Assembly (NCBI GenBank): GCA_022450595.1 | Contig: JAKUPT010000010.1 | Span: 1 to 60,186, forward strand | Direction of reading: 5' to 3' | Source: Bdellovibrionales bacterium | Lineage (GTDB): Bacteria; Bdellovibrionota; Bdellovibrionia; Bdellovibrionales; UBA1609 | DNA: 60,186 nucleotides | Shown here: positions 1,555 through 45,877 of the stretch, one piece after another | Layout: the number at the start of each line of letters is the position of its first letter | How positions within the stretch are numbered: the stretch's first letter is position 1 | The notes under the pieces: model-generated | Told to the model about the DNA's origin: nothing | What the model saw: only the letters and a program-made list of their open reading frames with translations | Database searches by the model: none | Translations under genes and position numbers: made by a program

Positions 1555-1704
1555 ATGACTCTGATGAGGATTTTGGTGTTCTATTTTATCATATTCTATG
1601 TGGCCTTCGTATGGGTGATTCGCCCGTCGACAGAAATATATAACAAACAAGAGTTGAATCAACTGTTGGAGTTTGTGGCTCCAGCTTCACATATGGATTA
1701 CTAA
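1555..1704 (+). CDS. possible small membrane protein, 49 aa
   Basis: A 49-codon frame beginning MTLMRILVFYF and ending at a TAA five bases before the stop of the convergent RCC1 lipoprotein. Residues 5-22 are strongly hydrophobic (one membrane span), followed by a polar tail. No clear Shine-Dalgarno site precedes the ATG, and a second in-frame ATG lies at 1564. It fills the only gap between two minus-strand genes. No homology is recognised; it may be a chance frame in AT-rich DNA. Confidence 0.3.
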   Translation: MTLMRILVFYFIIFYVAFVWVIRPSTEIYNKQELNQLLEFVAPASHMDY

Positions 1705-1708
1705 ATTA

Positions 1709-4423
1709 TTATTCAACAACAAGAGTTGGAATATTGATATTGGGCTTGAAACCACTTTGAGCATTATTATTTTCCCCCCAACAAAATAGCTTTTCACTAT
1801 CTATACCGCAGGTGTGATAACTACCTAAGGCAATGGTATTCCAAGCGTTTGAATTGCCGATTTTTTGTGGGACCTCAATATCACTTGTTGATCCGCTGCC
1901 ATTTCCGATCTGACTATAATAGTCTTCTCCCCAGCAAAATAGCTCGCCATTATCAATACCACAACTATGTCCACCACCTGTAGAAATCATACTCCAAGTG
2001 TTTGAACTGCCGATTTTTTGTGGGGCCTCAATATCACTTGTCGAGACATTTCCATTGCCAATTTGACCATTATAGTCTTGCCCCCAACAAAACAGCTCGC
2101 CATTATCAATGCCACAGGTGTGAGAGTTGCCAGCAGAAATTGCAGTCCATGTGTTTGAGCTGCCAATCTTTTGTGGAGCTTCGACATCACTTGTAGTGCC
2201 ACTCCCATTGCCTATTTGCCCAGTAGAGTCCTCTCCCCAACAATACAGTTCACCATTATCAATGCCACAAGTGTGAAATTCATTTGAAGAAATCATACTC
2301 CAAGTGTTCGAGCTGCCAATTTTTTGTGGGGCTTCCACATCACCTGTGAAGCCGCTGCCATTTCCGAGTTGGCCAGCAAAGTCCATACCCCAACAGTAAA
2401 GCTCCCCATTGTCAATACCACAAGTGTGTCCGTTGCCTGTAGAAATCTTACTCCAAGTGTTAGAGCTGCCGATTTTTTGTGGGGATAAAACATCATCAGT
2501 CCAGCCACTGCCATTACCAACTTGACCACTAGAATCTCTTCCCCAACAGTACAGTTCGCCATTATCAATGCCACAGGTGTGAGAGTTACCTGTAGAAATT
2601 GCAGTCCACGTGTTAGATTCGTTAATTTTTTGTGGTACTGGTATATTACCACTGAAGCTACTACCAATTCCTAGTTTTCCAAAACCATTACTACCCCAAC
2701 AGTACAGTTCACCCTTGTCAATGCCACAGGTGTAAGAATCACCAGTGGAAATTATATCCCATGTCTTTGAGTCGCCTACAATTTTTGGGGCATCAATGGA
2801 GCTTGTTGCTTTGCTGCTGTTACCGAGCTGTCCATTATTGTTTCGGCCCCAACAATAGAGTTCATTGTTTTTTATGCCACATGTATGAGTATTACCTGCA
2901 GCAATCATTAACCAATTAGTTGAAGCTCCTAGTCTTGTTGGGGTTTCTACATTGCCTATGGAGGAGTAACCATTACCTAATTGACCAAAATTATCTCCCC
3001 CCCAACAGAAGAGCTCACCATTATCAATACCGCAGGTGTGATAACTACCTAAGGCAATAGCACTCCATGCGTTTGAACTGCCGATTTTTTGCGGAGCTTC
3101 GATATCACTTGTAGATCCACTGCCATTACCTAATCTACCATCACTATCTGCTCCCCAGCAATAAAGCTCACCGTTATCAATGCCACAAGTGTGAGAGCGG
3201 CCTGCTGCAATAGTGCTCCACATGCTTGAGCTGCCAATCTTTTGTGGAGCTTCTATTGCACTTGTACTTCCACTGCCATTACCTATTTGCCCCCTGAAGT
3301 CTACTCCCCAACAAAAAAGCTCACCGTTATCAATGCCACAGGTGTGATAACTACCTAAGGCAATATCACTCCAAGTGTTTGAACTGCCAATCTTTTGTGG
3401 AGTCTCTACATTACTTGAAGAGCCACTGCCATTGCCGACTTGACCATAATTATCTCGTCCCCAACAAAAAAGCTCACCGTTATCAATGCCGCAGGTGTGA
3501 TAACTACCTGAGGCAATAGCATTCCAAGTGCTTGAGCTGCCGATTTTTTGTGCAGATAAAACATCATTAGTCGAGCCACTGCCATTACCAATCTGACCAT
3601 CATTATCAGTCCCCCAGCAGTAAAGTTCGCCACTAGCTATAGCACATGTATGAGAGTTTCCTGTGGAAATTTTATTAAATACTTTTTTTGATTCATAAGC
3701 TCGTAAGTCTAAAAACACATTATCAATATTAGGTTTAAGATTTTTAACAGAAAAACCATAATAAGCTGTATTTGAAAAACTAGAGGAGCTTGGAATGCTA
3801 AAGCTCAGGTCTACTTTATTTGCGCCCTTGACGGCACTGATTTTCCCTTTTGTAGAATATTCTAAGAACGGAAGGGGTGTATCTTCTTGACTAAATAGTT
3901 CGTATTCAACATCTGCTTTAAAAGGTAAAGGCTCAGAAAACTCTACACTGATCTGCTTAGTGTTTCCACCTTTTTGAACAGCTATAGCTTTTTCACTAAA
4001 ACTGTAAGTAATGGCATTGGACCCAGTTATTGTGATTATTTCACTCACTTTAGTTTTTGAACCTTGACTGACTTGCACTTGGTAAGAGCAAGTTGAGGAG
4101 AGCTCAAGCATTGCTTTTACCCCACTAATCACTCCCGTGGTGGAGTCAATACTAAGACCTGTGCAAGTGTTATTAATTAATTGAAATTCAGGGGTTAAAG
4201 AATAAGTTGAAAGTGAACTAGAGCCTGGTGTGTAGTCCACACTGGGTTTACAGTAATAACTTAAATTAACAGGAGCTTTTTCTGAACAGTTAGGATTTAA
4301 TATAAGCTGCTCTTTCTTTTCCAGTGAATCGAACACTGCCGTGCAGCCCATAAAACTAAAGGCAATAATTAGTATAAATGATCTTTTCAAAAAACATACG
4401 GCCATCAAATGAGTTATCGACAT
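1709..4423 (-). CDS. RCC1-repeat lipoprotein, 904 aa
   Basis: Surface or periplasmic lipoprotein: hydrophobic leader with lipobox SFMGC near residue 27, mature end CTAVFDS. After the leader comes an Ig-like putative domain (segment around STTGVISG, a He-PIG-like signature). From about residue 250 to the C-terminus there are 13 RCC1-type repeats of about 51 residues, each built on G-x-HTCGIDNGELYCWG and G(Q)xGNGSGS-x-APQKIGSS. RCC1 repeats form seven-bladed propellers, so 13 copies could make nearly two. Repeats are highly alike in DNA, inviting copy-number change. The leader contains a second possible start at residue 7. The molecular role is unknown; adhesion or partner binding is inference. 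A paralogue by architecture lies at 7569-10442. Confidence 0.85.
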   Translation of the reverse strand: MSITHLMAVCFLKRSFILIIAFSFMGCTAVFDSLEKKEQLILNPNCSEKAPVNLSYYCKPSVDYTPGSSSLSTYSLTPEFQLINNTCTGLSIDSTTGVISGVKAMLELSSTCSYQVQVSQGSKTKVSEIITITGSNAITYSFSEKAIAVQKGGNTKQISVEFSEPLPFKADVEYELFSQEDTPLPFLEYSTKGKISAVKGANKVDLSFSIPSSSSFSNTAYYGFSVKNLKPNIDNVFLDLRAYESKKVFNKISTGNSHTCAIASGELYCWGTDNDGQIGNGSGSTNDVLSAQKIGSSSTWNAIASGSYHTCGIDNGELFCWGRDNYGQVGNGSGSSSNVETPQKIGSSNTWSDIALGSYHTCGIDNGELFCWGVDFRGQIGNGSGSTSAIEAPQKIGSSSMWSTIAAGRSHTCGIDNGELYCWGADSDGRLGNGSGSTSDIEAPQKIGSSNAWSAIALGSYHTCGIDNGELFCWGGDNFGQLGNGYSSIGNVETPTRLGASTNWLMIAAGNTHTCGIKNNELYCWGRNNNGQLGNSSKATSSIDAPKIVGDSKTWDIISTGDSYTCGIDKGELYCWGSNGFGKLGIGSSFSGNIPVPQKINESNTWTAISTGNSHTCGIDNGELYCWGRDSSGQVGNGSGWTDDVLSPQKIGSSNTWSKISTGNGHTCGIDNGELYCWGMDFAGQLGNGSGFTGDVEAPQKIGSSNTWSMISSNEFHTCGIDNGELYCWGEDSTGQIGNGSGTTSDVEAPQKIGSSNTWTAISAGNSHTCGIDNGELFCWGQDYNGQIGNGNVSTSDIEAPQKIGSSNTWSMISTGGGHSCGIDNGELFCWGEDYYSQIGNGSGSTSDIEVPQKIGNSNAWNTIALGSYHTCGIDSEKLFCWGENNNAQSGFKPNINIPTLVVE

Positions 4424-4540
4424 TTTTTAGTTAATTATTAAGATTTAGGCCTAGTTCAAAAATGGTTGTATTAAATTGAGACAAAGCCTCAACTTTCGCC
4501 TGTATCATGACGATATAGATTTCAACAAAAGGCGTGAGTT

Positions 4541-6082
4541 TTGAGAGTTTCTATTTATTATTTACTAATACTTCCTATTGTGTTTTTGCCTGTGGTTTTT
4601 AACTCCTGTGCAAAAAAACTAAGTATTGATAAAGAGATTTTATATTCTAAAAGCTCTTGTCCAAAACCTGAAAACATTGATCCCATATCACCGACAAGCA
4701 ACAAAATGTCTGCTGCTGCTCAAACGGCTTTTCAAAACTCAAAACTTCAAATTGACCAGGCCTCACATCAAAGTTTTGGCCAGCAAAAACTGACTCAAAA
4801 TGTATTACCAGAAGGTTATAAGCTGTCTCTTATTTTTAAATCTAAATGTTTAAAGATTAATAACTCTAATGTTGCTGATTACTTTAATTTAAATCTTTTA
4901 GACGAGTTAGATAGTTATAAGAACTCCTTTGCTGTGAACTTAAATTTACCACAAAGCATTGATGTGAATGAACTCTCAGAATTATTAAACTCTGATGAGT
5001 GTGTGATGGGGGCCAGTACGAATAAAAAGTACAGTTCGCAATCCCTCCCCTTTTCAGACCCGTACTTTGAAAACCAAAAGCCTTATTTTGATAGCATTGA
5101 GCATGTGCAGGCTTTAGATAAAGTTATAAATTCAGAGGAACTTTCCGGTGCTCTTAATCAAAGTGTGAAAATCGCAGTACTTGATACCGGGGTTGATTAC
5201 AATCATCCTGATTTAAAAAACAATGTGATTCAATTAAACTCAGGTCAGTGGGGCTATAGAGCAAGCTCTGGCTCTGTTGTGGCCGGCGACCCCATGGATC
5301 GCTCCGCAGATGGGCACGGAACTCACGTGGCTGGCATTATTGGCGGTTTAGCCGGCAATGCTGAGGGCGGTACAGGCCTTGCCTACTTTGCTAAAATTTT
5401 AGCCGTGAATGTGTTTGATGATCATGATCAGGGTTATTACGCTTTATCTTCTGATGTGTATAACGGTATTCAAAGAGCCATACAAGAAAATGTGGATATT
5501 ATAAACTTATCTGTTGGGCAGTTCTCAGAAAGCCACAAAGGTGATGCTTCCTATATGCAGGGGCTTTTAGATGCCATCGCCAACAACATACTTGTTGTTA
5601 CAGTGATTGGGAATGACATGGGTGAGTATAACACAGCACAGGTTGATGGAGTGAACTTGACTGTAATTCCAGGAATCTATGGGGCCGCCATGGACGGAGT
5701 TATTACAGTAGCCAGTGTAGATGCAAAGACGAACACACTAAGTAACTTTTCCCTTTATAGTCAGGTTTATGCTGAGATTGCAGCACCAGGGTCTGTTGGA
5801 GAAGGCTCTGCGGACGGCATATACTCAACCACGAAGTCAAATTCATCTTCTGTTCCTTACGGATATATGAAAGGCACATCTATGGCAGCTCCTGTGGTGT
5901 CCTCGGTGGCAGGGCTTGCAGTGGCCATTTTAAAGCATAAAGGACAGGCTTACAGTGTTAAAAACTTAGAGGATCTTTTAAAAATGACGGCTCATAGAAG
6001 TTATAAATTAGATTGTAAAGTTCGAGACAATCAAATTTTGAATTCATTGAATTTGGTAGAATATTTAGAGAGTATTAATTAA
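4541..6082 (+). CDS. subtilisin-like serine protease (S8) lipoprotein, 513 aa
   Basis: Exported peptidase. TTG start with AAGG about 9 nt upstream; the leader ends in a lipobox-like VFNSC (Cys23). Residues 60-165 look like an I9-type propeptide region. The catalytic domain has all S8 motifs: Asp215 in AVLDTGVD, His259 in DGHGTHVAG, oxyanion Asn358, and Ser447 in GTSMAAP. Length and order fit a proprotein subtilase anchored to a membrane by lipid. Convergent with the QueD-like gene downstream. In predatory or lytic bacteria such enzymes degrade prey proteins; that role is inference. Family assignment is secure. Confidence 0.93.
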   Translation: MRVSIYYLLILPIVFLPVVFNSCAKKLSIDKEILYSKSSCPKPENIDPISPTSNKMSAAAQTAFQNSKLQIDQASHQSFGQQKLTQNVLPEGYKLSLIFKSKCLKINNSNVADYFNLNLLDELDSYKNSFAVNLNLPQSIDVNELSELLNSDECVMGASTNKKYSSQSLPFSDPYFENQKPYFDSIEHVQALDKVINSEELSGALNQSVKIAVLDTGVDYNHPDLKNNVIQLNSGQWGYRASSGSVVAGDPMDRSADGHGTHVAGIIGGLAGNAEGGTGLAYFAKILAVNVFDDHDQGYYALSSDVYNGIQRAIQENVDIINLSVGQFSESHKGDASYMQGLLDAIANNILVVTVIGNDMGEYNTAQVDGVNLTVIPGIYGAAMDGVITVASVDAKTNTLSNFSLYSQVYAEIAAPGSVGEGSADGIYSTTKSNSSSVPYGYMKGTSMAAPVVSSVAGLAVAILKHKGQAYSVKNLEDLLKMTAHRSYKLDCKVRDNQILNSLNLVEYLESIN

Positions 6083-6099
6083 TAAATCAGACAAAACAA

Positions 6100-6113
6100 T
6101 AGTCAGCTGACTA
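6100..6113. promoter_or_regulatory. 14-bp perfect palindrome between convergent genes
   Basis: TAGTCAGCTGACTA lies 18 nt after the subtilase stop and 28 nt before the end of the convergent QueD-like gene. It has no loop and no T-run after it, so it is not a standard terminator. It might be a protein-binding dyad or a cruciform; no function is shown. Confidence 0.35.
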
Positions 6114-6140
6114 AATGAATATAAAATACACTTGGTATTC

Positions 6141-6536
6141 TTAAATTAACTTTTCAACAAACTGATCTAGATAATAAAGACGCCCACCCACAAGCTCCAC
6201 ATTTGGAATTTTGCCTTTTAAATGATTTAAGATAAAATCTAAAATATCAGCTTCAGAAATAACGGTACTAGCTTTAAACTCATTGAGGTCTTTTTTTAGA
6301 TTTTTATGATCTAAAAGCCCAATTGTTTGTTTTAAAAAAGGCTTTACGTCAGTGAGATTCACCACAAGGCCTGTTTTTGGATCAATGGAGCCTTTTAAAA
6401 ACACCTCAAAGGTGAAGTTGTGCCCGTAGCCCACAGGGTTATTTTCTGTGTACAAATAGCTACAAGAAAAGGCTATTTTGCGTCTTAATATAAGAGAGGA
6501 AGAATTGGACTCGCTCATAGTCTCAGTTGCTAACAT
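6141..6536 (-). CDS. QueD / 6-pyruvoyl-tetrahydropterin synthase family protein with degenerate zinc site, 131 aa
   Basis: Matches the PTPS/QueD fold in order: a first strand KIAFSCSY (family FSAAH), GYGHNFTFEV (family HGHNY), DPKTGLVVNLTDVK (family G-V-DF-LK), LLDHKNL, and a helix after STVISEADI. In active QueD and PTPS three histidines bind zinc; here the first is Tyr and the second is Tyr, leaving one. The LDH segment is kept. Usual length for the family. Two start candidates exist (6536 and the ATG at 6518), neither with a strong ribosome site. No other queuosine genes are nearby. Likely a divergent or non-catalytic member. Confidence 0.7.
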   Translation of the reverse strand: MLATETMSESNSSSLILRRKIAFSCSYLYTENNPVGYGHNFTFEVFLKGSIDPKTGLVVNLTDVKPFLKQTIGLLDHKNLKKDLNEFKASTVISEADILDFILNHLKGKIPNVELVGGRLYYLDQFVEKLI

Positions 6537-6595
6537 GGGTATTGACTAAAGTCCACTAAGCTAGAATAATATTATTAATGTGAGGGATTTGTCTG

Positions 6596-7564
6596 GTGTT
6601 TAATAAATTAGGTCCAACAGTTATATTAATTACGGGTGTTGCTATTGGTTATGGTTTTAACCACTTTATCAGTGTGGTTGATACTCCTGCTGATCAAACT
6701 GAGAAAAAAGTTGTTGAAAAGCCTCAACCAAAACCGCAAAAGCCAAAAAAGTCGCCTGAAGAGATTTTAATGGCGGACACTCAAAAGTATTGCAATGAGA
6801 ATTTAAATAAGATTCCAGGTCAATTTGCAGCCGATCACTTAAAAAGTATCTGTGAAAAGGTAAAGATTCTTCCCAACTGCACAAGTGTTGAAGGCGACCC
6901 AATCTTTCACATGGAAAAAGAGGGAGTTTCAAAGCGTGGTAAACGCATTTTAGCTTTGTCCTTGATTCATGGAGATGAGTTTCCTTCAGGAACAGTCGCA
7001 TTAAAATGGATGTCACGACTGCTAGATATAGATTCTAGAAATACTTGGCGCGTGATCCCTATTGCCAACCCAGATGGCTGGAAAAAAGGCACTCGGATGA
7101 ATATAAACGGTTTGGATTTAAACCGCAACTTTCCCACCAATGACTGGGATGATATGGCTTTGGATCGTTGGAAGAATCAAAAAAAGTCTGATCCAAGACG
7201 CTACCCCGGGCCTGGTGGTGGCAGTGAGCCTGAAACCAAATGTTTAATTAGCCACATACAACAGTTTAAACCAGACTTTATTATCTCAGTTCATACCCCT
7301 TATGGCATTCTAGATTTTGATGGGCCAGAAATTGATGCCCCTCACTTCTACCCGCTTCAATGGCGCAGGTTTGGAAACTTCCCAGGCAGTCTTGGAAGAT
7401 ACATGTGGAAAGACCGACAAGTGCCTGTGCTAACCATTGAGCTTAAAGGAAATGATGCCATCACTAAACTTGAAGAACTTGATAAGCTTCAAGACATCAC
7501 AGGGCTTGTGGCTATCCGTGCTGATGAAAAGCTCTCTGATAGTGAAAAAAAAAGTAACAACTAA
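6596..7564 (+). CDS. membrane-anchored M14 zinc carboxypeptidase / MpaA-like amidase, 322 aa
   Basis: GTG start with TGAGGGA nine bases upstream. Residues 5-27 form one membrane segment or uncleaved signal, followed by a Lys/Pro-rich linker (KPQPKPQKPKK). The M14 domain is complete: zinc ligands His125 and Glu128 in HGDE, His233 in SVHTP, substrate-binding LNRNFP (Arg177) and general base Glu282 in LTIEL. PGPGGGSEPE resembles the loop of murein peptide amidase MpaA, so a peptidoglycan-peptide substrate in the periplasm is plausible but not proven. Convergent with the next gene, only four bases apart. Confidence 0.88.
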   Translation: MFNKLGPTVILITGVAIGYGFNHFISVVDTPADQTEKKVVEKPQPKPQKPKKSPEEILMADTQKYCNENLNKIPGQFAADHLKSICEKVKILPNCTSVEGDPIFHMEKEGVSKRGKRILALSLIHGDEFPSGTVALKWMSRLLDIDSRNTWRVIPIANPDGWKKGTRMNINGLDLNRNFPTNDWDDMALDRWKNQKKSDPRRYPGPGGGSEPETKCLISHIQQFKPDFIISVHTPYGILDFDGPEIDAPHFYPLQWRRFGNFPGSLGRYMWKDRQVPVLTIELKGNDAITKLEELDKLQDITGLVAIRADEKLSDSEKKSNN

Positions 7565-7568
7565 TCTA

Positions 7569-10442
7569 TTATTGTCCAGATCTTAAGTCGGCTGCAAATG
7601 AATTAAGAGCTCCACCTAAAGTGATATAATCTGAATTTTTCTTACGAATAATATAGACTCCACCTGCATATGTGATTTCATCAACCATATCAAGCATGTG
7701 ATTATTTAGAGTTTCTTTAGATAAACTCTCTAAAACTTTCCCCCATGCTACAGTTGAACCATCCGATCGACGTGCAAAAAAGGACGAAGATGTTGGAATA
7801 ATATCCACTATATCCTCAGTCAGTTCACTTGAAACCGGGGATGAATCGGCTCCAAAATTACTATCCCCCCAAGTCACAACACTACCATTAGTTTTAAGAG
7901 CTGCAAAAGCATATAATGAGCCAAAAACCTTTTGCACCCCAGAACTTAGATCGACTCCACTTGAGTCTCCTCCGTAAGCACCATATCCCCAAGATTGCGC
8001 ACTGCCATCAGTTTTAAGGACAACAAAAGCATATTTATTACTAAACACCTTTTGCACTCCAGAGGTTAAGTCAACACCTGTGGAGTCACCACCGTAGGAA
8101 GCATTCCCCCAAGTTACGGCACTTCCATCTGATTTAAGAGCTACAAAAGCATATCCATTAGTAAAAACTTTTTGCACTCCTGAACTTAAATCAACCCCAC
8201 TAGAGTCTCCACCACGTGTGCTACTTCCCCAAGTCACAACGCTGCCGTCAGCTTTAAGTGCGGCAAAGGCCTCATATCCATTAATTATATTTTGCAGACC
8301 AGAACTTAAATCGATACCAGAGGAGTCACCACCCCTGTCGCTTCTTCCCCAAGTCACAGCACTTCCATCAGTTTTAAGTGCCGCAAAGGCATATGAAGAT
8401 TTGAAGATATTTTCAATTCCCGAGCTTAAATCAACAGCACTGGAATCTCCACCACGAGTTACATCACCCCAAGCTACAGCCTGTCCATCTTTATTGAGAG
8501 CTGCAAAAGCAAAATTATTTGAGGATATTGATTTAACATTATTTAAGTTCAAATCTGCACCTTCACTAAGGCCACCATTTCTTGGATCACCCCAAGTCAC
8601 GACACCACCATCTGTTTTTAGTGCGGCAAAGGCATATGTATTACTAAAAATATTTTGAACGTCATTGGATATATCTAATCCTGTTGAATCTGACCCATAA
8701 TCAGCACATCCCCAAGTTTCAATATTTCCATTATCTTTAAGTGCAGCAAAAGCGTACTTAGTGGTAAATATTTTTTGGATACCTGAACTTAGATCAGCAC
8801 CACTGGAATCACAAGTGTAGCCAAAATTACCCCAAGTTACTGCACTCCCATCTGACTTTAAGGCTGCAAAAGAATCCCATGTGCTAAAGACTTCAATAAC
8901 ACCAGAGCTTAAATCAACGCCACTGGAATCAGATCCACTAGTGTTTGAGCCCCATGTGACGACACTCCCGTCTGTTTTTAAAGCCGCAAAAGCTCCTTTA
9001 CTACTAAAAATTTTTTGCACCCCAGTACTTAAATCCACTCCGCTGGAATCTGCTCCAGCCCCGTCACGCCCCCAAGTTACTGCACTACCGTCAGCTTTAA
9101 GTGCCGCAAAAGCTCTGGAAGTGCTGGTTATACTTACAACATTGCTACTTAAATCTACACCACTGGAGTCGCCACCATCGCCATCTTGCCCCCAAGTTAC
9201 GGCACTCCCATCTGATTTTATAGCTGCAAATACATAAGAATTGGCTATAACATCAACTACGCCTCCACTTAAATCCACTCCACTGGAATCGCCACCACTT
9301 AGATTACTACCCCAAGTAACAACACTGCCATCAGTTTTAAGGGCGGCAAAGGCACTATCGGTATTGAAAATGTTTTGTACATTTGAACTCAAATCAACAC
9401 CACTAGAGTCACCACCATTATTTGCATAACCCCAGGTAACAACACTGCCATCATCTTTGAGTGCTGCAAAAGCTCCATAGTTACCAAAAACTTTTATCAC
9501 ATCCGAGTCTATATTAACGCTACTAGAGTCACCTCCGTAGAAATCACTTCCCCAAGTAACTACACTGCCATCTTCTTTGAGTGCAGCAAAAGCGTGATAA
9601 TTATTAAATATATTTACCACTCCCGAGCTTAAATCAACCCCACTAGAGTCCCCGCCATAGCCAGCATCGCCCCAGGTAACTACACTGCCATCAGTTTTCA
9701 AAGCTGCAAAGGCTTTATCTGTAGCAAAAATTTTTACTGTGCTTTTGGCCTTCCTAAATTCATATGTCAACTTAGTATCAATACATGGTAGACTTACTCC
9801 ATTAGTAGTGGCCTTTAGATAAAACTTATAATGGCCCTCTGTCGAAATTTGACTTTCAATATCTCTAAAATCTTGTATGCTCTCAATAGATTTCTCTGCA
9901 ATTTTTTGACTACAACTGGAATCTTTGTAAACAGAGACAGTATCCCCCATATTTAAAAAATCTGTAAAGAGTATTCTAGGAGAGCTGTCTCCAGTTATGT
10001 ATTTTGAACTTATACCCAGACTGAATCCAGGCAGTTTTTTGATATAGGCTTTAAAAATTTTTTCTTCTTCTTTAACTTCGCCTTTAACAGTGGCATTAAT
10101 AATAACTTTAAATTCATAATCTCCAAACTGAGCTTTATCAGGACTCCAACTTAAGTCTCCAGAAGAAGAGTTAAAAAACAAATTATTTATATCACTACAA
10201 GGCTGAGTTTTGCTCACGGAATTATCTAATGTTAGATCATAAAAACATTTGAAGGTGTATTCTAGTTTTGATTTTGAAAGTTTATTTTGACTGCTAATAG
10301 TGACAGGATTATCCAATTCTGCAAAGTAGGCAAAATCGTTGTATTTAGTTAGCGCCAAACTTAAGTTAACCTCATTGCTATTGAAAACAGCCGTGCAGGA
10401 AATATTTAAAAATGATAAAGCTAAAATCAAACGTACAGACAT
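7569..10442 (-). CDS. large repeat lipoprotein with RCC1-like WG repeats, about 957 aa
   Basis: Lipoprotein leader MSVRLILALSFLNISC, mature end CTAVFNS, nearly the same as the protein at 1709-4423. The start at 10442 is preferred because the signal begins there; an in-frame TTG at 10469 is the longest alternative. Residues 20-240 hold non-repeated Ig or cadherin-like material. The rest is about 17 repeats of 38-40 residues with the core AFAALKTDGSVVTWG and GGDSSGVDLSSGV, a pattern related to RCC1 blades but shorter and lacking cysteine pairs. The repeats are very similar in DNA. Probably a surface propeller or solenoid; ligand unknown. Antisense frames opposite the repeats are artefacts of the repetition. 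Confidence 0.82.
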   Translation of the reverse strand: MSVRLILALSFLNISCTAVFNSNEVNLSLALTKYNDFAYFAELDNPVTISSQNKLSKSKLEYTFKCFYDLTLDNSVSKTQPCSDINNLFFNSSSGDLSWSPDKAQFGDYEFKVIINATVKGEVKEEEKIFKAYIKKLPGFSLGISSKYITGDSSPRILFTDFLNMGDTVSVYKDSSCSQKIAEKSIESIQDFRDIESQISTEGHYKFYLKATTNGVSLPCIDTKLTYEFRKAKSTVKIFATDKAFAALKTDGSVVTWGDAGYGGDSSGVDLSSGVVNIFNNYHAFAALKEDGSVVTWGSDFYGGDSSSVNIDSDVIKVFGNYGAFAALKDDGSVVTWGYANNGGDSSGVDLSSNVQNIFNTDSAFAALKTDGSVVTWGSNLSGGDSSGVDLSGGVVDVIANSYVFAAIKSDGSAVTWGQDGDGGDSSGVDLSSNVVSITSTSRAFAALKADGSAVTWGRDGAGADSSGVDLSTGVQKIFSSKGAFAALKTDGSVVTWGSNTSGSDSSGVDLSSGVIEVFSTWDSFAALKSDGSAVTWGNFGYTCDSSGADLSSGIQKIFTTKYAFAALKDNGNIETWGCADYGSDSTGLDISNDVQNIFSNTYAFAALKTDGGVVTWGDPRNGGLSEGADLNLNNVKSISSNNFAFAALNKDGQAVAWGDVTRGGDSSAVDLSSGIENIFKSSYAFAALKTDGSAVTWGRSDRGGDSSGIDLSSGLQNIINGYEAFAALKADGSVVTWGSSTRGGDSSGVDLSSGVQKVFTNGYAFVALKSDGSAVTWGNASYGGDSTGVDLTSGVQKVFSNKYAFVVLKTDGSAQSWGYGAYGGDSSGVDLSSGVQKVFGSLYAFAALKTNGSVVTWGDSNFGADSSPVSSELTEDIVDIIPTSSSFFARRSDGSTVAWGKVLESLSKETLNNHMLDMVDEITYAGGVYIIRKKNSDYITLGGALNSFAADLRSGQ

Positions 10443-44431: not shown

Positions 44432-45877
44432 TTATTTATTATGTACTAAATATCCATTTGCATAGTACGTATGACTGCGATCATCATCCGGACTAACTGG
44501 TGATCCATAAGCGGCCTCTAGTTTTAAATTGTACACTGTCAAACTTTGATTCCTTATTTGAATAGCATCAGAGTACTCTAATAATTCTGTTCGGTTTTCT
44601 ATACGAATTAACTGATCACCTAAGCCTAAAGCTCCATCCACAATAAATTTATTATGCTCTAAGAATGTTGCTACCGGATTAAAAGACTTCCATTCTTCAT
44701 CTCCTGTATTAGGATTGACAGTTTTCACCGGATGCTCTGAAGTTATAAAGTGGTTGTCGTCATTAAAGGAGTGTAAATATCTATCTCCCAGAGGAACTCT
44801 TTCAATTCCTACCACTTCATTAATGGCTCCACCTTGACCTAATACCAAGTCACCAATTTTAACTTTGGAAATAACAACTTCACTCACCCCATCGGCCATA
44901 AGGATTTTGGTTTCAGCGGTAAAACAACTGCTACCGGCACCACCACCTGAACCCGGATCATGGCGACATCCTGGAGGCCCTCCGGAAATTTTACCATCGT
45001 TACATCTGTATTTTCCACTTCCGCCGCCAGTGTAACGACCACTACAGTGTCTATGATAAGTTTTTGAACTTTCGCCATGTTTTATTGAAATAGTACCGCT
45101 TCTAGTTCTTACATTATTACAATGCCTATAGCATGTTTCAGTTTTTCCATAAATTTTTCCAGAATCACAGTATCCAGCCTTATAGCAAATTTTAGTTCTA
45201 CTATCATAGGGAGTCCTATAACTTTCATTGTGTTCAACAACTTTTTTTGCATCTTTAACAAATCCACAAGATACATGATTTAAAGCAGAACACTTCTCAG
45301 TGCCGTCACTTTGCTTCGTATATTTTCCATCTAAAGTTTCACACATTTGTTTTTTTGTAATTTCAGGCTCTTTAGCACAACTTAAAATTTCTCTAGTTGT
45401 GGGATCTACCGTTAAAAGCACAGTTCCGGCCTGTTGGGGTTTTAGCTCTCCACCTATGAGTTGAACTCTTGGCTTGAAAGTCACCATAAGGTCGGCCTTA
45501 TACTGGTCAGATGTTCCTTGCCTAGATGAATCCTCAATATAAACTCTAGCAATATCTAGATTTTGATCATATTGCTCGCCAGATTTTAATACACGTCCAT
45601 CTTGAAGTCGGAATGTTAAATCCATTCCGTCACCACCGGGGCGTGCTTTTGAGTGATCATAACGTTGCGTGGTACCAGTGATCGCATATTCACATGTGTC
45701 TTCAACAGAAATCATTGTTTGAAGCTCATTAATCAGTACAAAGCTCGACATTTTAACTTCTGTTCTTTTGGTGGCTTTAGTTGACATGACCATCATTTGA
45801 GACAGACCCAGTGTTACAACAGATGTTAGCCCTACCGCCACCATCACCTGAATTAAACTCATTCCTTTATTATTCAT
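44432..45877 (-). CDS. type IV pseudopilin fused to C-terminal Hint (intein-like) domain, 481 aa
   Basis: N-terminus is a prepilin leader: NNKG|MSLIQVMVAVGLTSVV, cleaved by prepilin peptidase after Gly5, then a hydrophobic helix. Position +5 is Gln, not the usual Glu. Residues 45-165 are a pseudopilin-like globular part. Residues 167-304 carry eleven cysteines, followed by a Gly/Ser linker (PGSGGGAGSS). From Cys318 to the end is a Hint domain: block A CFTAETKILMADG, KIGDLVLG, block B ITSEHPV (T379xxH382), and the end YLVHNK with His479-Asn480. The chain stops one residue later at Lys, so there is no +1 nucleophile or C-extein. N-terminal autocleavage or thioester transfer at Gly-Ser-Ser|Cys318 is possible; protein splicing is not. 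Confidence 0.88.
   Translation of the reverse strand: MNNKGMSLIQVMVAVGLTSVVTLGLSQMMVMSTKATKRTEVKMSSFVLINELQTMISVEDTCEYAITGTTQRYDHSKARPGGDGMDLTFRLQDGRVLKSGEQYDQNLDIARVYIEDSSRQGTSDQYKADLMVTFKPRVQLIGGELKPQQAGTVLLTVDPTTREILSCAKEPEITKKQMCETLDGKYTKQSDGTEKCSALNHVSCGFVKDAKKVVEHNESYRTPYDSRTKICYKAGYCDSGKIYGKTETCYRHCNNVRTRSGTISIKHGESSKTYHRHCSGRYTGGGSGKYRCNDGKISGGPPGCRHDPGSGGGAGSSCFTAETKILMADGVSEVVISKVKIGDLVLGQGGAINEVVGIERVPLGDRYLHSFNDDNHFITSEHPVKTVNPNTGDEEWKSFNPVATFLEHNKFIVDGALGLGDQLIRIENRTELLEYSDAIQIRNQSLTVYNLKLEAAYGSPVSPDDDRSHTYYANGYLVHNK

What the first reader, a model, noticed from the sequence alone, without database searches (positions are those of the whole stretch)
44432..45877. Pseudopilin carrying a C-terminal Hint autoprocessing domain
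Seen: a clean class III prepilin leader, a cysteine-rich module, a Gly/Ser linker and a complete Hint domain (Cys318, TxxH, terminal HN). The chain ends one residue after HN, so splicing cannot occur, but N-S acyl shift at Cys318 can, giving a thioester. Known: Hint domains drive hedgehog-type and bacterial intein-like cleavage. A pilin subunit that cuts or couples itself, perhaps attaching its Cys-rich end to a lipid, sugar or protein, would be a new use. Function is inference.
Basis: partly seen in the sequence, partly recalled or inferred. Interest (0 to 1): 0.88.

Follow-up and report, generated by a model that had tools for sequence, protein, structure and literature searches.

The report
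Pilin ending in self-cleaving intein-like domain
A pilus subunit from a relative of predatory Bdellovibrio bacteria ends in a well-preserved intein-like domain that should be able to cut itself off or leave a reactive joint, and the same genome carries five copies of this unusual domain.

Summary
Window 44432-45877 (minus strand) encodes a 481-residue protein with a class III prepilin leader (MNNKG|MSLIQV), a pilin head, a variable 10-Cys module, a Gly/Ser linker and a complete C-terminal Hint domain (C318, T379-S-E-H382, H479-N480, then K481 and stop). AlphaFold models the Hint part at pLDDT about 95. It matches solved bacterial intein-like (BIL) domains best (Z 19.6 to Tetrahymena BIL2, 16.6 to C. 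thermocellum BIL). The genome holds five such Hint copies, four on complete pilins. Pilin-Hint fusions also occur in other Bdellovibrionota and in one Omnitrophota genome, scattered over the Hint tree. Catalytic residues are intact in 12 of 12 pilin members, and between two paralogues the Hint is the most constrained part. The Hint pilins of this genome lack Glu5, as tip-capping pilins do. Sister modular pilins end instead in the self-cleaving S74 chaperone. Best reading: a tip-type modular pilin with an active BIL-like C-terminal autoprocessing domain. Cleavage at Ser317/Cys318 is likely; covalent coupling to prey, lipid or sugar is unproven. Modular pilins and BIL domains are both known; their union appears undescribed in the papers I could search, so this is a new variant of known kinds.

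The parts
45863..45877 (-). prepilin leader peptide, residues 1-5 (MNNKG)
   Evidence: sequence; class III leader; prepilin peptidase gene present in the genome
45707..45862 (-). pilin alpha-1 helix, residues 6-57 (MSLIQVMVAVGL...), with Gln instead of Glu at mature position 5
   Evidence: helix 8-57 in the AlphaFold model; N_methyl match; position-5 census
45284..45706 (-). pilin globular head, residues about 58-198, beta strands, low to medium model confidence
   Evidence: homology to paralogues on C12, C148, C3, C4; model
44957..45283 (-). variable Cys-rich module, residues about 199-307, predicted without confident fold
   Evidence: sequence; 20-48% identity between paralogues; pLDDT under 50
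44927..44956 (-). Gly/Ser linker PGSGGGAGSS, residues 308-317, ending at the predicted scissile bond Ser317-Cys318
   Evidence: sequence; repeated flexible linkers at the same place in relatives
44438..44926 (-). Hint / bacterial intein-like domain, residues 318-480
   Evidence: Pfam PF05203; profile match to BIL structures; fold match Z 19.6
44924..44926 (-). Cys318, Hint nucleophile (block A)
   Evidence: Cys in 67 of 68 relatives, Ser in one
44732..44743 (-). T379-S-E-H382, block B TxxH
   Evidence: His382 in 68 of 68 relatives; Thr379 in 65 of 68
44438..44443 (-). H479-N480, block G
   Evidence: 12 of 12 pilin members; 67 of 68 in all (part of the set was found with a pattern containing HN)
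44432..44437 (-). +1 Lys481 and stop codon: no C-extein
   Evidence: sequence; Lys follows HN in 59 of 79 Hint ends

Best explanation
It is a modular type 4 pilin of the tip-capping type whose C-terminal module is a catalytically intact bacterial intein-like Hint domain. Steps: (1) the prepilin is inserted, its leader is removed, and the C-terminal domains fold in the periplasm [inferred from the leader]; (2) Cys318 attacks the Ser317 carbonyl, assisted by T379/H382, giving a thioester [inferred; all required residues and the fold are present]; (3) the thioester is resolved by hydrolysis or by another nucleophile, so the Hint domain leaves and the pilin ends in the Cys-rich, probably adhesive, module [inferred]. 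Ligation to a second extein cannot matter, because only Lys481 follows HN. The Hint occupies the place that the self-cleaving S74 chaperone holds in sister modular pilins, so I take its main role to be a C-terminal maturation or release domain for a tip adhesin. Whether the leaving step also couples the tip to an amine, sugar or lipid is open.
For: Hint fold and BIL affinity. Catalytic residues kept in all 12 pilin-Hint members. Constraint: between paralogues C12 and C148, dN is 0.08 (dS 1.27) in the Hint and 0.52 (dS 1.42) in the pilin part, so the Hint is not decaying and its similarity is not recent gene conversion. Five Hint copies in the genome, four on complete pilins. The same fusion elsewhere in the phylum (G054, G092, G232, G240, G237, G200; G206 with a partial Hint match) and in Omnitrophota; pilin members fall in several parts of the Hint tree (4 changes of label; at least 2 forced by well-supported branches). 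Gln5 in all Hint pilins of this genome against Glu5 in 11 of its 12 other pilins; lack of Glu5 marks the capping subunit (PMC9934059, PMC10191384). Modular pilins are usually tip-displayed adhesins (PMC8179133). S74 at the same place in pilins of same-family genomes. Prepilin peptidase and several assembly-ATPase-type genes are present. BIL domains produce mainly cleaved products (PMC7664689).
Against: No biochemical evidence of cleavage. HN is kept although C-cleavage would release only one or two residues, which an N-cleavage-only role does not explain. Tip position rests on one residue and on bulk; some pilin-Hint fusions in other families keep Glu5 (L113, L124, L065, L131). The Cys-rich module has no recognised fold, so 'adhesin' is a guess. 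The gene stands alone, away from pilus gene clusters. The periplasm is oxidising and Cys318 could be tied in a disulfide.
Confidence: 0.55

Rival explanations
1. Covalent coupling: the Cys318 thioester is kept until the tip meets an amine, sugar or lipid nucleophile, and the Cys-rich tip is transferred to it, hedgehog-like or like BIL2, so that the pilus becomes covalently attached.
For: The closest solved relative, Tetrahymena BIL2, makes an isopeptide bond to lysine and can conjugate its N-terminal partner to other substrates (PMC8616854); all catalytic residues are intact; the +1 residue is Lys in 59 of 79; the flexible linker leaves the junction accessible.
Against: No conserved acceptor, sterol-binding domain or partner gene seen; BIL2 itself carries Met, not Lys, after HN in the solved construct, so the +1 Lys is no proof of acceptor chemistry; BIL domains usually give cleaved products.
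Confidence: 0.17
2. The Hint acts as a folding or assembly cap (a chaperone-like C-terminal domain) without cleavage in the cell; catalytic residues are kept by the fold and by ancestry.
For: The position matches that of the S74 chaperone in sister pilins; HN is conserved although C-cleavage would have almost no product.
Against: Cys1 and block-B His are nearly invariant over bacteria and phages, more than a pure structural role would need; dN/dS in the Hint is about six times lower than in the pilin part.
Confidence: 0.15
3. Remnant of a pretoxin HINT or polymorphic toxin: the domain once released a C-terminal toxin that has been lost.
For: PT-HINT matches some members, e.g. the C3 paralogue above its cut-off; in some other proteins Hint is followed by more than 100 residues.
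Against: All five copies in the genome end one or two residues after HN and the Hint stays under strong constraint; short ends are common over the whole family, phages included.
Confidence: 0.06
4. Selfish, intein-like passenger inserted near the 3' end of pilin genes.
For: The Hint occurs behind unrelated N-termini.
Against: No homing endonuclease, no C-extein that would need splicing, and vertical paralogue expansion: the five own-genome Hints form one clade.
Confidence: 0.03

Closest known systems
Bacterial intein-like (BIL) domains, structures 6Y75/6TMM (BIL2 of Tetrahymena BUBL1) and 2LWY (C. thermocellum)
   Same: whole-domain profile match and fold, Cys1, TxxH, HN, no +1 Cys/Ser/Thr; BIL2 also shares the WKSxxP stretch
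   Different: here the domain ends the protein, with one residue after HN, and sits on a pilin
C-type BIL domains of predatory bacteria (Dori-Bachash et al. 2009, Funct Integr Genomics 9:153; Bd2400, PPS-1 domain)
   Same: Hint domains on proteins of predatory bacteria; [quoted passage not shown]
   Different: paper not held, sequences not compared; the profile found only a weak partial match (E 0.07) in the three genus-g37 genomes of a Bdellovibrionaceae-like family; pilin fusion not mentioned in the papers that cite it and were read here
Modular type 4 pilins (PilB/PilC of Streptococcus sanguinis; PMC8179133)
   Same: class III leader, small pilin part, functional module grafted on through a linker; probable tip location; S74 'peptidase' modules listed
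   Different: no Hint or intein module in the paper's main text (its data set was not readable)
Hedgehog C-terminal autoprocessing domain (1AT0)
   Same: fold (Z 15.5), C-terminal position, N-S acyl shift chemistry
   Different: hedgehog lacks HN and has a sterol-recognition region (own knowledge); none is seen here
Pilins ending in the S74 intramolecular chaperone (same-family genomes G012, G029)
   Same: class III leader, large extra module, C-terminal self-cleaving domain in the same position
   Different: unrelated catalytic fold; the window's genome has no S74 match at all

Membership tests
Hint superfamily / BIL domain | Hint fold over the whole domain | tested here: met
   Z 19.6 to BIL2, 16.6 to 2LWY, 15.5 to hedgehog-C; profile E 5e-15
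Hint superfamily / BIL domain | N-terminal Cys/Ser, block B TxxH, penultimate His and terminal Asn | tested here: met
   C318, T379/H382, H479, N480; Cys1, block-B His and HN conserved in 12 of 12 pilin members
BIL domain (A-type-like) | HN present and no obligatory nucleophile at +1 | tested here: met
   HN followed by Lys481 and stop; +1 Lys in 59 of 79 relatives; definition from PMC9185962 and PMC7664689
BIL domain | self-cleavage or ligation activity | not testable with these tools
   needs expression and mass spectrometry
C-type BIL of predatory bacteria | sequence relation to Bd2400 and PPS-1 domain | not testable with these tools
   paper not held; sequences not available here
Canonical intein | C-extein with Cys/Ser/Thr at +1 that allows splicing | tested here: not met
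   chain ends at +1 Lys
Type 4 pilin / modular pilin | class III leader followed by a hydrophobic alpha-1 helix | tested here: met
   MNNKG|MSLIQV...; helix 8-57; PF07963 below cut-off on this protein, over it in the C3 paralogue
Type 4 pilin / modular pilin | Glu at mature position 5 (usual, not universal) | tested here: not met
   Gln5; Glu5 is also absent from tip-capping pilins GspK and S. sanguinis PilA, so this argues for a special position, not against being a pilin
Type 4 pilin / modular pilin | assembled into a filament | not testable with these tools
   prepilin peptidase and assembly-type ATPases present in the genome
Hedgehog | sterol transfer region after the Hint | tested here: not met
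   chain ends one residue after HN

The most novel reading that the evidence does not exclude
A type 4 pilus tip that carries its own thioester-forming Hint domain and uses it to fasten the Cys-rich tip covalently to a target surface (prey envelope amine, sugar or lipid), shedding the Hint as it does so: a self-activated covalent grapnel in predator-lineage bacteria.
Probability: 0.13. Interest if true: 0.9.

Novelty: new variant of a known kind. Interest (0 to 1): 0.6.

Why it matters
If the domain is active, a pilus subunit would mature or release its own tip with no outside protease, or make a covalent bond at the tip. Type 4 pili have been linked to prey contact and invasion in Bdellovibrio relatives, and what their tips present is poorly known. 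The constructs are small and the tests simple, so the question becomes directly testable. The swap between S74 and Hint at the same place in modular pilins also suggests a general need for a self-removing C-terminal domain on large pilins.

Tried and rejected
1) Scan of genome contigs with the single protein gave no relative; the alignment-based scan gave 79 loci. 2) Recent gene conversion as the cause of the near-identical C12/C148 Hint domains: rejected, synonymous divergence is about as high in the Hint (1.27) as in the pilin part (1.42). 3) The +1 Lys as the acceptor by analogy with BIL2: not supported, BIL2 has Met there in the solved construct. 4) A partner gene next door: the 950 bases downstream hold no convincing ORF and the neighbours are core genes. 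5) Promoter and terminator scan: no excess over shuffles. 6) Defence-system link: PADLOC gives only weak intein-type and Cas8a-type matches. 7) Hint remnant behind the Hint-less C4 pilin: none found in three frames. 8) Pfam and the fold search gave no assignment to the Cys-rich module; it was not folded alone. 9) Literature: 'Hint domain' with 'type IV pilin' gives one review of another topic.

Full report
OBSERVATION. The minus-strand ORF 45877-44432 encodes 481 residues. It starts with a class III prepilin leader MNNKG|MSLIQVMVAVGLTSVV, continues with a pilin-like head, a 10-Cys stretch (residues 179-304), the linker PGSGGGAGSS, and a Hint domain from Cys318 to Asn480, followed by Lys481 and the stop. 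Pfam sees the first 43 residues of the Hint (PF05203, 34.1 bits, above the cut-off); PF07963 is weak on this protein alone but passes the cut-off with the C3 paralogue, which has the same architecture. A profile of the Hint family matches BIL2 of Tetrahymena BUBL1 (E 5e-15) and the C. thermocellum BIL (E 6e-12) over the full length. AlphaFold gives the Hint about pLDDT 95, the pilin head 35-80 and the Cys-rich part under 40. The fold matches BIL2 with Z 19.6 over 142 residues (rmsd 2.1), 2LWY with 16.6, and hedgehog-C with 15.5.

FAMILY IN THE OWN GENOME. The genome (3.06 Mb, 156 contigs) holds five copies of this Hint. Four sit on complete pilins: C2 (window), C12, C148, C3. The fifth (C139) lies at a contig edge, with its pilin part in another frame. 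A sister pilin on C4 has no Hint: it stops shortly after the equivalent of Ser317-Cys318 (SSCMVLGG, stop), and IS66-type genes lie further downstream. Between C12 and C148 the Hint has dN 0.08 at dS 1.27, the pilin part dN 0.52 at dS 1.42, and the Cys-rich part is more diverged still. So the catalytic module is the most constrained part and the Cys-rich module the least. dS is near saturation, so these ratios are rough.

PILIN TYPE. The genome has one prepilin peptidase match, several assembly-ATPase-type genes and 19 prepilin-leader matches. All Hint pilins, and the Hint-less sister, have Gln at mature position 5. Of the other pilins whose leader was read, 11 have Glu5 and one has Gln5. Glu5 normally pairs with the N-terminal amine of the next subunit above; capping subunits such as GspK or PilA lack it (PMC9934059, PMC10191384). 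In the same order, G054 has Ser5 and G092 Asn5; in more distant fusions Glu5 is present (L113, L124, L065) or Gln (L064, L070). The tip location is therefore likely for the window's group, and inferred.

RELATIVES. The Hint is patchy: 5 of 143 genomes of the class and 27 of 368 of the phylum. Pilin-Hint fusions occur in G054 (with tail-fibre-like repeats between), G092, G232, G240, G237, G200, with a partial Hint match in G206, and in an Omnitrophota genome (L131). G092 corresponds to a MAG titled Bdellovibrionaceae (L107), which places the window in the same order. Other carriers of the same Hint are lipoproteins with Gly/Ser/Thr linkers, secreted proteins of Kiloniellaceae, Nomurabacteria, Gracilibacteria and Micavibrio, and virion proteins on viral contigs. 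In a 68-sequence tree the own-genome copies form one clade (99/94), and the pilin label needs four changes, at least two of them forced by well-supported branches. Cys1 is kept in 67 of 68 (the other is Ser), block-B His in 68, terminal His and Asn in 67. The genome-contig scan used a pattern with VHN, so HN conservation there is partly by construction; the phylum search and the viral scan did not require it. Lys follows HN in 59 of 79 ends.

MECHANISM. With HN followed by one residue, ligation of two exteins is meaningless, so any function must lie at the Ser317-Cys318 bond. The residues for the N-S acyl shift are present and conserved. BIL domains mainly give cleaved products (PMC7664689). 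Same-family genomes carry modular pilins that end in the S74 intramolecular chaperone (pilin leader seen at the start of the S74 frame in four: G012 C87, C75, C15 and G029 C101), and the window's genome has no S74 at all. The Hint thus seems to hold the slot of a C-terminal autoprocessing domain on a large tip pilin. I take release of the Hint with exposure of the Cys-rich tip as most likely (0.55), a non-cleaving cap as a rival (0.15), and covalent coupling as the exciting alternative (0.17). For coupling there is a precedent in BIL2, which forms isopeptide bonds to lysine (PMC8616854). No acceptor is known here.

KNOWN OR NEW. Modular pilins are a known, very diverse class (264 architectures; PMC8179133). 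BIL domains on proteins of predatory bacteria are known since Dori-Bachash et al. 2009 (cited in PMC9185962 and PMC2797640; the paper itself was not readable). I found no report of a pilin-Hint fusion, but the supplementary list of modular pilins and the 2009 paper could not be checked. I file it as a new variant: known module, known carrier, new union.

WHAT IS SHOWN AND WHAT IS INFERRED. Shown: sequence anatomy, Hint/BIL fold by prediction, conservation and constraint, multi-copy state, recurrence of the fusion, the Gln5/Glu5 contrast, and S74 at the same place in sister pilins. Inferred: activity, cleavage in the periplasm or on the filament, tip position, adhesive role of the Cys-rich part, and any covalent coupling.

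Noticed in passing
L011 (G000:C139) 1-795: Fifth Hint copy lies in another frame than its Cys-rich pilin part; no obvious homopolymer at the break, close to a contig edge. Pseudogene, frameshift variant or assembly error.
   Followed up: partly
L012 (G000:C4) 480-1277 and 1693-5370: Hint-less sister pilin ends a few codons after the Ser-Cys that would open the Hint; IS66-type genes lie downstream. Possible loss of the Hint.
   Followed up: partly
L175, L176 (viral contigs): The same Hint type lies inside phage proteins, followed by more than 500 residues after HNR; L175 matches phrog_358 and phrog_877 (unknown function). These could splice or cleave in the virion.
   Followed up: no
L201, L207 (viral contigs): Collagen-like tail-fibre proteins of phages end in this Hint with 7-10 residues after the matched end.
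   Followed up: no
L095 (Olivibacter jilunii): Tandem Hint domains: the HN end of one lies four residues before the Cys region of the next, within a very long protein.
   Followed up: no
alignment A3: 12 of 17 members match the Pfam AXH (ataxin-1/HBP1) model, best E 3.6e-8, and the profile touches ataxin-1 structures; hints at a relation between AXH and Hint folds.
   Followed up: no
L236, L237, L239, L240 (G012, G029): Modular pilins ending in the S74 chaperone in same-family genomes; S74 is absent from the window's genome.
   Followed up: partly
L009 (G000:C12) 5316-7769: Large secreted protein with repeated 'ALKxDGSVVTWG' units, RCC1-like, on the same contig as a Hint pilin.
   Followed up: no
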